A stretch of DNA of 64,000 nt, taken from positions 1-64,000 of the forward strand of contig JAUCGA010000015.1 in assembly GCA_030377865.1 (NCBI GenBank). The letters run 5' to 3'. Of this stretch, positions 4,276 to 59,802 are shown piece by piece; position 1 is the stretch's first letter, and each line of letters opens with the position of its first letter. The position numbers and the translations under genes are program-made. This DNA comes from Anaerolineales bacterium HSG25 (GTDB lineage Bacteria > Chloroflexota > Anaerolineae > 4572-78 > J111). A model generated the notes under the pieces. The model did not search any database and was not told the origin of the DNA. It saw only the letters and a program-made list of their open reading frames with translations.

Positions 4276-4378
4276 TAGGAATGAGCATTAATTAACTTGT
4301 GCAGTTCGTCATGAGAGTGGTTCAATCTTTAAGATTGAACCACTCTGGAGCGCGCAACTTATTTAGACCTCATCCCTA
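4276..4378. repeat. Family F element (F1), intact
   Basis: TA-bounded ends TAGGAATGAG and CATCCCTA enclose a 14-bp-stem hairpin (GAGTGGTTCAATCTT...AAGATTGAACCACTC). It lies directly upstream of the AAAGGAG of the zinc-ribbon gene. Confidence 0.75.
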
Positions 4379-4387
4379 AAATAATCA

Positions 4388-4545
4388 AGAGTTTGTCGTT
4401 TCATTCATAACCTGACATGTTGATAAAACCAAAAGCATTTTTCGACAGGATTAACAAGATTAACAGGATTTTTTTGCTTGTAATCCTGTCAATTCTGTTA
4501 ATCCTGTCAGATATTGTTTTAGTTATGTTGAAATGATAAACTTCT
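4388..4545. repeat. Family A element (A2), overlapping a gene end
   Basis: Ends AGAGTTTGTCGTTTCA and TGAAATGATAAACTTCT are inverted repeats. The flanks share AATAATC, compatible with a decayed 9-bp target duplication. The right end encodes the last codons of the small membrane protein. Confidence 0.7.
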
Positions 4546-10184: not shown

Positions 10185-10284
10185 ATTTTATCCATAGTAG
10201 ACAACAACGGTTCTCAGATCATTATAGGAAAGATACCTGCATTTTGGAAAACCGTTAGTGTCATTAGTTTTTCGCTACCTCAAC

Positions 10285-12612: not shown

Positions 12613-12950
12613 TTGATAGCCTTGGGCTAAAGCCACAAGGCTAAAAACTGAAGCCAGCTAAAGCGGCCTATTTAGCTGGCTTCAGCCTGCTTAGGCTATC
12701 AGCATCGGGATTTATTCCGATGTGAGTTGATGCCTTCATGATGATAACGGGTGTGTACCTGTTACCCATAACAGGCGGGTAGCGCGAAGCCTCCTTGAAG
12801 GAGGATACACCCGCCAAATATCTGCGAGCTGTGTGGTTGACTGCAAGGTCTTGTATAGATGTTCAGATAAACATTTTCAGTTGTCACCTTCCCGCAAGTT
12901 CAAAACTTGCGGGAAGGTTGGTCTTGAATTGAAAATCATTATCTGAAAGA
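12613..12950. repeat. Tandem pile of families I, J and K
   Basis: I1 12613-12724 (TGATAGCC...GGCTATCA with inner GCCAGCTAAA hairpin), J 12740-12822 (GGCGGGTAGCGCGAAG...) and K1 12860-12950 (TTCAGATAA...TTATCTGAA with the CCCGCAAGTT hairpin). 12960-13070 adds an AAGGTCTTG/CAAGACCTT pair and a lone family B end. No gene is visible in 12605-13140. Confidence 0.65.
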
Positions 12951-13151
12951 CTGTAGGTGTGTCGTTACAGCCAAGACCTTGCAGGTTTTTAAAACCTACA
13001 AGGTCGATTTTCCGGTTATCCGCATAGGTCGCAATTTTTTTTACAAATTAGTTCTGAAAACCACTTAGTATAAAACGATATGATTTCTCCGTGGAAGGCA
13101 GGGCGACTGACCTGATTTCCAAGTAATGAGCCTATCGAGGAGTGACAACAG

Positions 13152-17745: not shown

Positions 17746-17937
17746 AATCAAAAAGCCCACGAATTGTCTTTTCAGAGGTGACTCATTCGCGTCAACTGGA
17801 TTAGCGGTCATATTCCGTACCTTCGCCAACTACTTTATGCGCGTAAATATTCAGTGAACTCGCCAGAAAGAGTGTCAGAAACCCGATTTCTTTAAGAAAT
17901 CGGGTTTCTAGGGCTACTGAACTTTTACTTATGCGCC
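17746..17937. repeat. Family L element (L1), interrupted by E2
   Basis: Reverse copy of the long L form at 44798, from ATCAAAAAGCCCACGAATTGTC to TTTATGCGC. E2 sits inside its last 10 bp. Confidence 0.7.
17843..17928. repeat. Family E element (E2) with 8-bp target duplication
   Basis: Flanked by TTATGCGC on both sides (17835-17842, 17929-17936). Inserted into the end of L1. Confidence 0.88.
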
Positions 17938-18275: not shown

Positions 18276-18375
18276 TAGGAATGAGGTTTTTTAACTTGTG
18301 CATGTTGGTCATGAGAGTGGTTCAATCTTTAAGATTGAACCACTCTGGAACGTGCAACTTAATTCCGAATCCTTA
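18276..18375. repeat. Family F element (F2), forming a stop codon
   Basis: TA-bounded: TAGGAATGAGG at left and CGAATCCTTA at right. On the minus strand the right end reads TAAGGATTCG; that TAA is the stop of the secreted metalloprotease gene. Confidence 0.75.
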
Positions 18376-24249: not shown

Positions 24250-24315
24250 GAAATCTCTCCGCGTGCTTCTGATTTTTGGTAGTGCGGAAGTAATGATATG
24301 AATGATATGCACATA

Positions 24316-25512
24316 TCAGGTAGTTAAGTGGTCAAACTCGGCTATATCGTTTACCTCCAATGCTTTATCCAGCCATTTCTCTAAGAGTTTAAGGTCGGTA
24401 GTCGTCTCGATGCGCCGAACTAGTATTTTAGGAACGGTAGTAAAACGGTGGCGCAATAAACGAAGTAAGGTTTGTAAAAGTTGTTGTTTATGTTTTTCCT
24501 GTTCAGCAACGAATAGGGCTTGTTGTTTTTCCTGTTCAGCCAGTAAGGCTTGTTGTTTCTCACGTTCAGCCAGTAAGGCTTGTTGTTTCTCACGTTCAGC
24601 CAGTAAGGCTTGTTGTTTCTCACGTTCAGCCAGTAAGGCTTGTTGTTTCTCACGTTCAGCCAGTAAGGCTTGTTGTTTCTCGCGTTCAGCTAGTAAGGCT
24701 TGTTGTTTCTCACGTTCAGCCAGTAAGGCTTGTTGTTTCTCACGTTCAGCAATGAGTACGACCTGTTGTTCAGCCAACAGCGTCTGAAACGCGGGGGATT
24801 TCTGAATCAGCACGGTGTCGGTTATTAGGGGCATTAATCGCTCCCCAACATCTTGTATGATAAACTCTAGGTTTTCTTTGGTGATGTAAGCACTTTCAGC
24901 CATAGTTATTTCCTCCTTAGTTATCGTCGGGCGGACGATATAAGCATAATGTAGATAGATATGATAGGCTGTATCAGCCATGATTTCCTGTAAAAACTGT
25001 CGAAACTTCTGTTCTGATGAGGCGAACAACAGGAGAGGATAGTTTTTCGGTATCAACGGTAGTTCGTTGACCACAATAATAAGGGTGGGTGGCTGTTCGT
25101 TCCCCAAATAATATCCGGGTTTGATTGCTTGAAAACCAAACATACTCGTTTGCAGGAGTTTGTTTGGTTTACCAGCACAAACAATTGAGACACTCATCTG
25201 AGGAGGCAACAATTGATGTTCACTCATGTAAAACATGCTTCGTCCTCTGATGAGTTGATAGCCCGCAATATGCAGACGGTCTGCTTTTCCTTTGAACTCA
25301 ATTTGATTATGCTCAGCGAACCGAATGAACGACGTTTGTTGTGCTAGCCGTTTTTGGTCTGCGGGATGTGGCAGTTCAATCACCACATCAATCGTTCGTG
25401 GCAAACGGCTCACCTCAACCTCGGTTTGGGGGGTAAAATTTAGGGTTTGGCCTAATGAAACCAGTATCTGTTTGAAGAGTGGGTCTAACTCAGTCCGTTC
25501 AGTTGTTGCCAT
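24316..25512 (-). CDS. Unknown protein with a decapeptide coiled-coil repeat
   Basis: 398 residues. The N-terminal 190 residues look like a compact alpha/beta domain; IDVVIELP and QIEFKGKAD could be a D...ExK nuclease-like pair, but this is weak. A central segment ends around 245. Seven near-perfect AEREKQQALL units (about 255-325) and two looser ones follow, predicted as one long charged coiled coil. A C-terminal helical part (LLRLLRHRFTTVPKIL...) closes it; such tails with a short 'LEKWLDKAL' helix occur in Rpn/PD-(D/E)XK-like proteins of cyanobacteria and Chloroflexota. Function unknown. Confidence 0.65.
   Translation of the reverse strand: MATTERTELDPLFKQILVSLGQTLNFTPQTEVEVSRLPRTIDVVIELPHPADQKRLAQQTSFIRFAEHNQIEFKGKADRLHIAGYQLIRGRSMFYMSEHQLLPPQMSVSIVCAGKPNKLLQTSMFGFQAIKPGYYLGNEQPPTLIIVVNELPLIPKNYPLLLFASSEQKFRQFLQEIMADTAYHIYLHYAYIVRPTITKEEITMAESAYITKENLEFIIQDVGERLMPLITDTVLIQKSPAFQTLLAEQQVVLIAEREKQQALLAEREKQQALLAEREKQQALLAEREKQQALLAEREKQQALLAEREKQQALLAEREKQQALLAEQEKQQALFVAEQEKHKQQLLQTLLRLLRHRFTTVPKILVRRIETTTDLKLLEKWLDKALEVNDIAEFDHLTT
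24511..24750. repeat. 30-bp coding minisatellite
   Basis: Seven 30-bp units at 24541-24750 differing at two positions only, plus a degenerate unit at 24511-24540. The unit length keeps the frame, so copy number can change without a frameshift. Confidence 0.95.
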
Positions 25513-28353: not shown

Positions 28354-28445
28354 GTTGAAAATTTCAGTAAAGTAGCTCTAGAACCCGATTTCTCAAAGAA
28401 ATCGGGTTTCTGATGCTCTTTCTGGCGAGTTCACTGAATATTTAC
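28354..28445. repeat. Family E element (E3), left end decayed
   Basis: Right end ACTGAATATTTAC is intact; left end fused to a family Q arm. Central ACCCGATTTCT/AGAAATCGGGT hairpin present. Confidence 0.7.
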
Positions 28446-33757: not shown

Positions 33758-33847
33758 GTAAATATTCAGTGAACTCGCCAGAAGGAACGTCAGAACCCCG
33801 ATTTCTCAAAGAAATCGGGGTTCTAGGGTGGTTTTACTGAACTTTTA
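33758..33847. repeat. Family E element (E4) with near-perfect 8-bp duplication
   Basis: Flanks GAAGAATT (33750-33757) and TAAGAATT (33848-33855) agree at seven of eight positions; the element's last base is lost or changed. Confidence 0.75.
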
Positions 33848-33987
33848 TAAGAATTGACCTTCTTCGAAGATTGATTTAGTCTAAAATAGTTATATATTAT
33901 AGTATCCAGAAGAATCTTGTCCTATTTATTCATCCGATGAGTAGAGGCTAAATTTTTCTGGAGGAGTAGTTGAGGGGTAACAAGATA

Positions 33988-34288: not shown

Positions 34289-34475
34289 ATAAGAATGAAT
34301 TCTTATGCTGACACGAGAAACCTGCTTAAGCAGGTTTTTTTTGTTTAAGAGTAAATATTCAGTGAACTCACCAGAAAGAGTGTCAGAAACCCGATTTCTT
34401 TAAGAAATCGGGTTTCTAGGGCTACTTTACTGAACTTTTACGTTTAAGATGCTGATTTCAATCAGCGGCCATAAG
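34289..34475. repeat. Family G repeat (G5), reverse, interrupted by E5
   Basis: ATAAGAATGAATTCTTAT and AAACCTGCTTAAGCAGGTTT (34309-34333, with T8, a likely terminator for the gene ending at 34245), then E5, then the rest of G (GTTTAAGATGCTGATTTC). Confidence 0.8.
34351..34441. repeat. Family E element (E5) with perfect 8-bp target duplication in G5
   Basis: 91 bp flanked by GTTTAAGA on both sides (34343-34350, 34442-34449). The uninterrupted G copies have GTTTAAGA once. Confidence 0.93.
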
Positions 34476-46186: not shown

Positions 46187-46277
46187 GTAAATATTCAGTG
46201 AACTCGCCAGAAAGAGCGTCAGAAACCCGATTTCTTTGAGAAATCGGGTTTCTAGGGCGGCATCACTGAACTTTTAC
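46187..46277. repeat. Family E element (E6) with perfect 8-bp target duplication
   Basis: 91 bp flanked by TAAAACCC on both sides (46179-46186, 46278-46285), 12 bp after the aminotransferase stop. Confidence 0.93.
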
Positions 46278-58119: not shown

Positions 58120-58550
58120 GTTACAGACTCCAGAGCGGGTCAATTTTTATGATTGACCACTCTGGGTAAAAGTTCAGTAATACCGCCCTAGAAACCCGAT
58201 TTCTCAAAGAAATCGGGTTTCTGACGCTCTTTCTGGCGAGTTCACTGAATATTTACGATGTTCAGATAAACATTTTCAGTTGTCACCTTCCCGCAAGTTT
58301 TGAACTTGTGGGAAGGTTGGTCTTGAATTGAAAATCATTATCTGAAAGACTGTAACTTGTTAAAAAATCGGGTGTCCGCATGATGGTAGCGGATGTATAG
58401 ATACTACCTATACTAGCCCACCAAATACCCGTTGCGATTACATAATCGCAACGGTCAGGAAAACAGGAGTGTCAAAATTGTATTTTGACAGCAAGAATGG
58501 AATTCTTGCACTCCGGGAAAAGTGACAACTTAGAAATGAAAGTTACTTAG
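58120..58550. repeat. Repeat pile: F-like core, E7, K2, J7 and a family B end
   Basis: F-core-like hairpin (AGAGCGGGTCAATTTTTATGATTGACCACTCTG) to 58165; E7 58166-58256; K2 58259-58350; J 58379-58462; then the GTGTCAAAATTG...GGAATTCTTGCAC hairpin and TAGAAATGAAAGTTACTTAG, a B end. Elements abut within a few bases. Confidence 0.75.
58166..58256. repeat. Family E element (E7), reverse
   Basis: 91 bp, GTAAAAGTTCAGT...ACTGAATATTTAC; no target duplication recognisable because both sides are other repeats. Confidence 0.8.
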
Positions 58551-59663: not shown

Positions 59664-59673
59664 AGTTACTCCA

Positions 59674-59802
59674 AAAGTTTGTTGTTTCATTCATGACCTG
59701 ACATATTGATAAAACCAAAAGCATTTTTTGACAGGATTAACAGGATTTTTGCTTGTAATCCTGTCAAATATTGTTTTAATCATGTTGAAACGATAAACTT
59801 CT
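59674..59802. repeat. Family A element (A4) with 9-bp duplication including the aguA ribosome-binding site
   Basis: AAAGTTTGTTGTTTCATTCATGACCTGAC...GTTGAAACGATAAACTTCT between two GTTACTCCA copies (59665-59673, 59803-59811). On the minus strand the duplicated bases are TGGAGTAAC. Confidence 0.85.

What the first reader, a model, noticed from the sequence alone, without database searches (positions are those of the whole stretch)
34289..34475. Family E is a true mobile mini-element: 8-bp target duplication inside another repeat with its empty site in the window
E5 (91 bp, ends GTAAATATTCAGT / ACTGAACTTTTAC, 11 of 13 positions inverted) splits a family G repeat, and GTTTAAGA is present on both sides. 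Uninterrupted G copies (10285, 11278, 50095) have it once. E6 (46187) is flanked by TAAAACCC twice and E2 (17843) by TTATGCGC twice; E4 (33758) by GAAGAATT/TAAGAATT. Seven copies in 64 kb and no transposase in view: a non-autonomous family.
Basis: seen in the sequence. Interest (0 to 1): 0.72.

Follow-up and report, generated by a model that had tools for sequence, protein, structure and literature searches.

The report
Orphan IS66-type mini-transposon (MITE) family
A 91-base DNA parasite without genes has copied itself to several hundred places in the genome of an uncultured Chloroflexota bacterium, probably using a transposase of the known IS66 type borrowed from another element; it is a clear case of a known kind of thing, unusual mainly in its copy number and in the lack of any surviving helper gene.

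Summary
E5 is 34351-34441, flanked by GTTTAAGA at 34343-34350 and 34442-34449, inside a G repeat. The window has seven E copies. The genome (4.99 Mb, 80% complete) has 463 left ends against 1 for a reversed control. Of 211 full copies in 2.23 Mb, 95 carry a perfect 8-bp duplication; in a subset of 190 the figure is 87, against 1 in 35,910 mispaired flanks. Thirty-six of 110 copies lie in other repeats that also exist uninterrupted, with the 8 bp once. Elements with the same ends, different interiors and perfect 8-bp duplications occur in another genus, another family of the order, and singly further afield. The ends (GTAAATATTCAG / GTAAAAGTTCAG) resemble those of single-ORF IS66 insertion sequences of the same class, which also make 8-bp duplications. 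E is best read as a MITE mobilised in trans by an IS66-type transposase. No IS66 gene was found in the four genomes with sets of such elements, and no parent with exactly these ends, so the helper remains inferred. Side result: the 3-base loop of the central palindrome occurs in both orientations about equally. New member of a known kind.

The parts
34343..34350 (.). left copy of the 8-bp target duplication GTTTAAGA of E5
   Evidence: identical to 34442-34449
34351..34441 (+). E5, 91-bp MITE; ends GTAAATATTCAGTGAAC / GTTTACTGAACTTTTAC class, 11 of 13 terminal positions inverted
34385..34417 (.). central 33-bp palindrome of E5 (15-bp arms, 3-base loop)
   Evidence: RNA fold z -6.7; DNA fold z -6.2
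34442..34449 (.). right copy of the target duplication GTTTAAGA
   Evidence: uninterrupted copies at 10282, 11277, 48340, 50092 and elsewhere in the genome
17655..17745 (+). E1, full length, no recognisable duplication left
17843..17928 (+). E2, 86 bp, flanked by TTATGCGC on both sides
28356..28445 (-). E3, decayed right end, no duplication
33758..33848 (+). E4, last base changed, flanks GAAGAATT / TAAGAATT (7 of 8); stem has a change on both arms (CCCC/GGGG)
46187..46277 (+). E6, flanked by TAAAACCC on both sides
58166..58256 (-). E7, full length, no duplication; abuts another dispersed repeat that starts at 58257

Best explanation
E is a MITE: a 91-bp, gene-less DNA transposon consisting of two short imperfect inverted ends around a palindromic core. 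It moves when a transposase supplied in trans recognises the ends (GTAAnnRTTCAG...), joins them to a target cut with an 8-base stagger, and the gaps are filled to give an 8-bp duplication. The transposase was most likely of the IS66 family, from the short single-ORF elements common in this class of Chloroflexota. Shown here: insertion with exact 8-bp duplication, empty sites, the same ends carrying other interiors, hundreds of copies, almost wholly intergenic. Inferred: the IS66 helper, and that it is now absent, lost or unassembled, so that the family may be idle. The core palindrome appears to invert independently of the rest of the element, probably by template switching or arm-arm recombination at the hairpin.
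For: Exact 8-bp duplications: 87 of 190 copies against 1 of 35,910 mispaired controls; 95 of 211 in a larger sample. 36 of 110 copies with a duplication have an uninterrupted counterpart of the site. Same-genus relative HSG24 has 25 left ends, with perfect duplications in several sampled copies. Another genus of the family has 134/135- and 206-bp elements with the same ends, other interiors and perfect duplications in nine sampled copies; further cases are L139 (another family of the order), L132 (same class) and L151 (Armatimonadota). IS66 elements in the class have ends GTAACCGTTCAG, GTAAGCGTTCAG/C, GTAACTGTTCAG; L276, L285, L291, L292 and L081 have perfect 8-bp duplications, L270 and L290 have 7 of 8. 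A matrix of IS66 ends ranks the E left end in the top 2.6e-5 and the right end in the top 1.6e-4 of genome positions. Published description of IS66: 20-30 bp ends starting GTAAGCG and 8-bp repeats (PMC11946415). Loop counts CAA 79, TTG 62, TTA 29, TAA 26.
Against: No IS66 transposase domain in the own genome or in the other three genomes with sets of such elements. The E ends match IS66 ends over about 12 bases only; inside that, E has TGAACTCGCC where the IS66 elements have other bases. No long element with E-like ends in 1.95 Mb of own genome. The genome is only 80% complete and fragmented, so absence is weak evidence.
Confidence: 0.75

Rival explanations
1. E is a MITE as above, but its helper belongs to another or undescribed DDE transposase family that also makes 8-bp duplications.
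For: IS66 domains are absent from all four genomes with sets of such elements; the E right end scores slightly below the weakest IS66 end used in the matrix (8.34 against 9.08).
Against: The IS256 domain is absent from all four genomes, and the six DDE_Tnp_1 loci have no E-like ends bounding the gene. Start GT(A)A, TTCAG at positions 8-12 and 8-bp duplication together fit the IS66 elements of the same class.
Confidence: 0.22
2. E is not mobile but a structural repeat (REP/BIME-like, attenuator or terminator) spread by recombination, and the flanking octamers are chance or part of the repeat.
For: Strong hairpin; intergenic placement, 7 of 110 sites in ORFs against 974 of 1210 random positions; mild excess between convergent genes.
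Against: Octamers differ from copy to copy, match exactly 8 bp and not 7 or 9, and empty sites have them once.
Confidence: 0.02
3. The apparent copies and duplications are an assembly artefact.
For: The assembly is a fragmented draft (143 contigs).
Against: Copies lie in unique flanks on many contigs; the family recurs with its own duplications in other assemblies.
Confidence: 0.01

Closest known systems
IS66 family insertion sequences, short single-transposase-ORF type as found here in Anaerolineae (L088/L267, L276, L285, L292)
   Same: Ends beginning GTAA with TTCAG/TTCAC at positions 8-12, imperfect inversion, 8-bp target duplication (PMC11946415)
   Different: E has no gene, is 91 bp, and differs from every IS66 end found beyond about base 12; no IS66 gene in its genome
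Bacterial MITEs, e.g. MITEPsy1 of Pseudomonas syringae (100 bp, 4-bp duplication, shown to transpose; PMC3189936)
   Same: About 100 bp, no gene, inverted ends, target duplication, presumed mobilisation in trans
   Different: MITEPsy1 is present in 6 copies with a probable parent IS in the same genome; E has over 400 copies and no parent found; different ends and duplication length
REP/REPIN palindromic repeats (PMC3733652 for tagged REPs)
   Same: High-copy palindromic repeats, mostly outside genes
   Different: No target duplication is expected of REPs (own knowledge); E has transposon ends and 8-bp duplications

Membership tests
MITE (non-autonomous DNA transposon) | short, no coding capacity, terminal inverted repeats | tested here: met
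   91 bp, 11 of 13 inverted ends
MITE (non-autonomous DNA transposon) | target site duplication of fixed length and empty sites | tested here: met
   8 bp
MITE (non-autonomous DNA transposon) | multiple dispersed copies | tested here: met
   463 left ends, control 1
MITE (non-autonomous DNA transposon) | autonomous parent with the same ends (usual, but not required: orphan MITEs are accepted, own knowledge) | tested here: inconclusive
   none found in 1.95 Mb of own genome nor in the class and phylum samples; absence is weak evidence in drafts
IS66-derived element | ends starting GTAA and similar to IS66 inverted repeats | tested here: met
   GTAAATATTCAG/GTAAAAGTTCAG against GTAACCGTTCAG etc.; similarity limited to about 12 bases
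IS66-derived element | 8-bp target duplication | tested here: met
   E; IS66 elements of the class:
IS66-derived element | IS66 transposase (PF03050) in the same genome able to act in trans | tested here: inconclusive
   none found, but the genome is 80% complete and the helper could have been lost after the copies spread
IS66-derived element | transposition of E by an IS66 transposase | not testable with these tools
   needs a bench assay
IS256 family | Transposase_mut domain present as candidate helper | tested here: not met
   none in four genomes

The most novel reading that the evidence does not exclude
The central palindrome of E, and of other repeat families in this genome, flips orientation so often that the two loop orientations are at equilibrium. 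This would mean that a hairpin-processing activity (replication template switching, or the transposition intermediate itself) acts on these cores about as fast as the elements spread, so that the loop state could serve as a clock of hairpin formation in the cell.
Probability: 0.2. Interest if true: 0.5.

Novelty: new member of a known kind. Interest (0 to 1): 0.36.

Why it matters
It is a clean, statistically firm example of a bacterial MITE burst (over 400 copies in a 5-Mb genome, against 25 left ends in its same-genus relative) in a lineage of uncultured Anaerolineae, with the helper gene apparently gone. It gives a set of filled/empty sites and a likely helper family to test. It also warns that this genome's many palindromic repeats include transposons and are not all regulatory signals. 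The near 1:1 inversion of the palindrome loop is a natural record of hairpin dynamics that could be exploited.

Tried and rejected
IS66 domain searches in the own genome by HMM and by protein: nothing. Other transposases in the four genomes with sets of such elements: DDE_Tnp_1 (six loci, none bounded by E-like ends) and IS256 (none). Long elements bounded by E-like ends with a 7-8 bp duplication in 1.95 Mb: only a nested E (L209), a segmental duplication (L220) and weak chance pairs. End-pattern scans: the stricter pattern found nothing in IMG/VR, the looser one two unpaired hits. Phylum-wide sample: two single hits outside the own genome, neither with a partner end. The central palindrome as a widespread repeat: no match in viral contigs, only weak partial matches in plasmids. 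Literature: no paper found on an IS66-derived MITE with these terms.

Full report
Observation. E5 is exactly as described: 34351-34441, ends GTAAATATTCAGT / ACTGAACTTTTAC, with GTTTAAGA at 34343-34350 and 34442-34449, inside a G repeat. The window has seven copies, two of them on the minus strand. Three have a perfect 8-bp duplication, one has 7 of 8, and three have none. Ten of the larger window ORFs were scanned with NCBIfam and ten with Pfam (one in both), and none matched a transposase.

Larger sample. The window is contig 46 of a 4.99-Mb, 143-contig draft genome, 80% complete. The left end occurs 463 times in it, against 1 for the reversed pattern. I took 1.95 Mb as stretches and found 190 full copies, of which 163 are exactly 91 bp. 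The longest exact flank match is 8 bp in 87 copies, 7 bp in 7 and 9 bp in 1. Mispaired flanks gave 1 exact octamer in 35,910. With 2.23 Mb held, 95 of 211 copies have a perfect duplication and 123 have at least 7 of 8. There is no strong target sequence; the last duplicated base is mostly C or G and the interior is A+T-rich.

Empty sites. For 110 copies with at least 7 of 8 matching flank bases I joined the flanks minus one octamer and searched the held DNA. 36 joins align across the junction to an uninterrupted stretch elsewhere, often at 91-99% identity over 60-80 bases and in many copies, because E often lands in other dispersed repeats. E5 is one of them, with 44 matches. Insertion with duplication is thus shown directly.

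Distribution. In 60 relatives the strict end occurs only in a same-genus genome (25 left ends; loci L142, L143 and others name it as Anaerolineales bacterium HSG24) and in a same-family genome with 11 (Chloroflexi bacterium Dive96_bin10.46). In the latter the elements are 134/135 and 206 bp, with the same ends and unrelated interiors, and nine sampled copies have perfect 8-bp duplications. A looser search found L139 (134 bp, other family of the same order, CCTCTTTT twice), L132 (78 bp, same class, CCTTAGAG twice) and, in the GTDB contig scan, L151 (264 bp, Armatimonadota, ATTAAATT twice). The ends are therefore the mobile unit; the interior is passenger.

Which transposase. An 8-bp duplication with ends beginning GTAA suggests IS66; a published description gives ends beginning GTAAGCG and 8-bp repeats (PMC11946415). 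PF03050 and a 490-aa IS66 protein found IS66 genes in 18 of 61 relatives and in 85 of 396 genomes of the class. Their ends could be read in many cases: GTAACCGTTCAGTTGG (L267), GTAACCGTTCAG/GTAAGCGTTCAG (L268, L270), GTAACCGTTCAGCCGG with GAGTGCCT twice (L276), GTAACTGTTCAGGTACCC with GTCCGCTC twice (L285), GTAACTACTAAGCC with GCCAAAGA twice (L292), GTTACTACCCAGG with AATGTATA twice (L291). A matrix built from 27 IS66 ends puts the E left end in the top 2.6e-5 and the right end in the top 1.6e-4 of 3.9 million positions. A MITE of the Dive96 genome (L116) even has a right end starting GTAACCGTTCAG, identical over 12 bases to the IS66 end of L267. This is good but not conclusive evidence. No IS66 domain is in the own genome or in the three other genomes with sets of such elements, and no IS66 element with the same 17-base ends was found. 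In the whole own genome only one partial DDE_Tnp_1 hit and no IS256 or IS66 hit was found. Either the helper was lost, or it sits in the unassembled 20%.

Core palindrome. Positions 35-67 form a 15-bp stem with a 3-base loop. Oriented by the ends of E, the loop reads CAA 79, TTG 62, TTA 29, TAA 26 times. CAA/TTG and TTA/TAA are reverse complements, each pair compatible with 1:1 (binomial p 0.18 and 0.79), and both orientations occur within the common right-side haplotypes. The simplest reading is that the core inverts often compared with the age of the copies. The mechanism (template switching, arm-arm recombination, or a step of transposition) is not shown.

Context. 7 of 110 insertion sites fall in ORFs of 120 aa or more, against 974 of 1210 random positions: surviving insertions are intergenic. 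Placement between convergent genes is somewhat above the intergenic length share (45 of 191, expected about 29; whole table p 0.012), which would fit tolerance or use as a terminator but is weak.

Verdict. A real, large, probably IS66-mobilised MITE family; a new member of a known kind. My estimate is that the claim 'non-autonomous transposon' is about 98% secure and 'IS66-type helper' about 75%.

Noticed in passing
L209:4090-4420: An E copy with perfect duplication GATGAATC holds, inside its left end, a second dispersed repeat (CAGAAGTTT...AAACTTTTGT) flanked by what looks like a 5-bp duplication ATTCA; this second family (compare window 4386-4461 and 59672-59747) is probably another MITE with a different helper.
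   Followed up: partly
window 12858-12955, 58257-58354 (D15), 4304-4364, 18304-18364 (D9): Other palindromic repeat families of this genome also show both orientations of the loop (e.g. GTTCAAAAC and GTTTTGAAC in D15), so core inversion is not special to E.
   Followed up: partly
window 24447-24776: Eight overlapping 120-nt copies at 30-bp spacing, i.e. a head-to-tail 30-bp unit, overlapping ORFs on both strands (24302-24787 + and 24316-25512 -): possibly an in-frame protein repeat.
   Followed up: no
L220:5480-6860: A direct segmental duplication of about 1.14 kb that includes an E copy and a response-regulator-like ORF; real or an assembly effect.
   Followed up: no
window 33758-33848 and L181:1077: Stem changes on both arms at once (AACCCCG/CGGGGTT in E4; GAAGCCCG/CGGGCTTC in L181), as expected if one arm templates the other.
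   Followed up: partly
L267, L276, L285, L291, L292: IS66 elements of about 1.4-1.6 kb with a single transposase ORF, several with 8-bp duplications, in Anaerolineae, with ends other than the textbook GTAAGCG.
   Followed up: partly
own genome, E intergenic placements: E is somewhat over-represented between convergent genes (45 of 191 against about 29 expected by length).
   Followed up: partly
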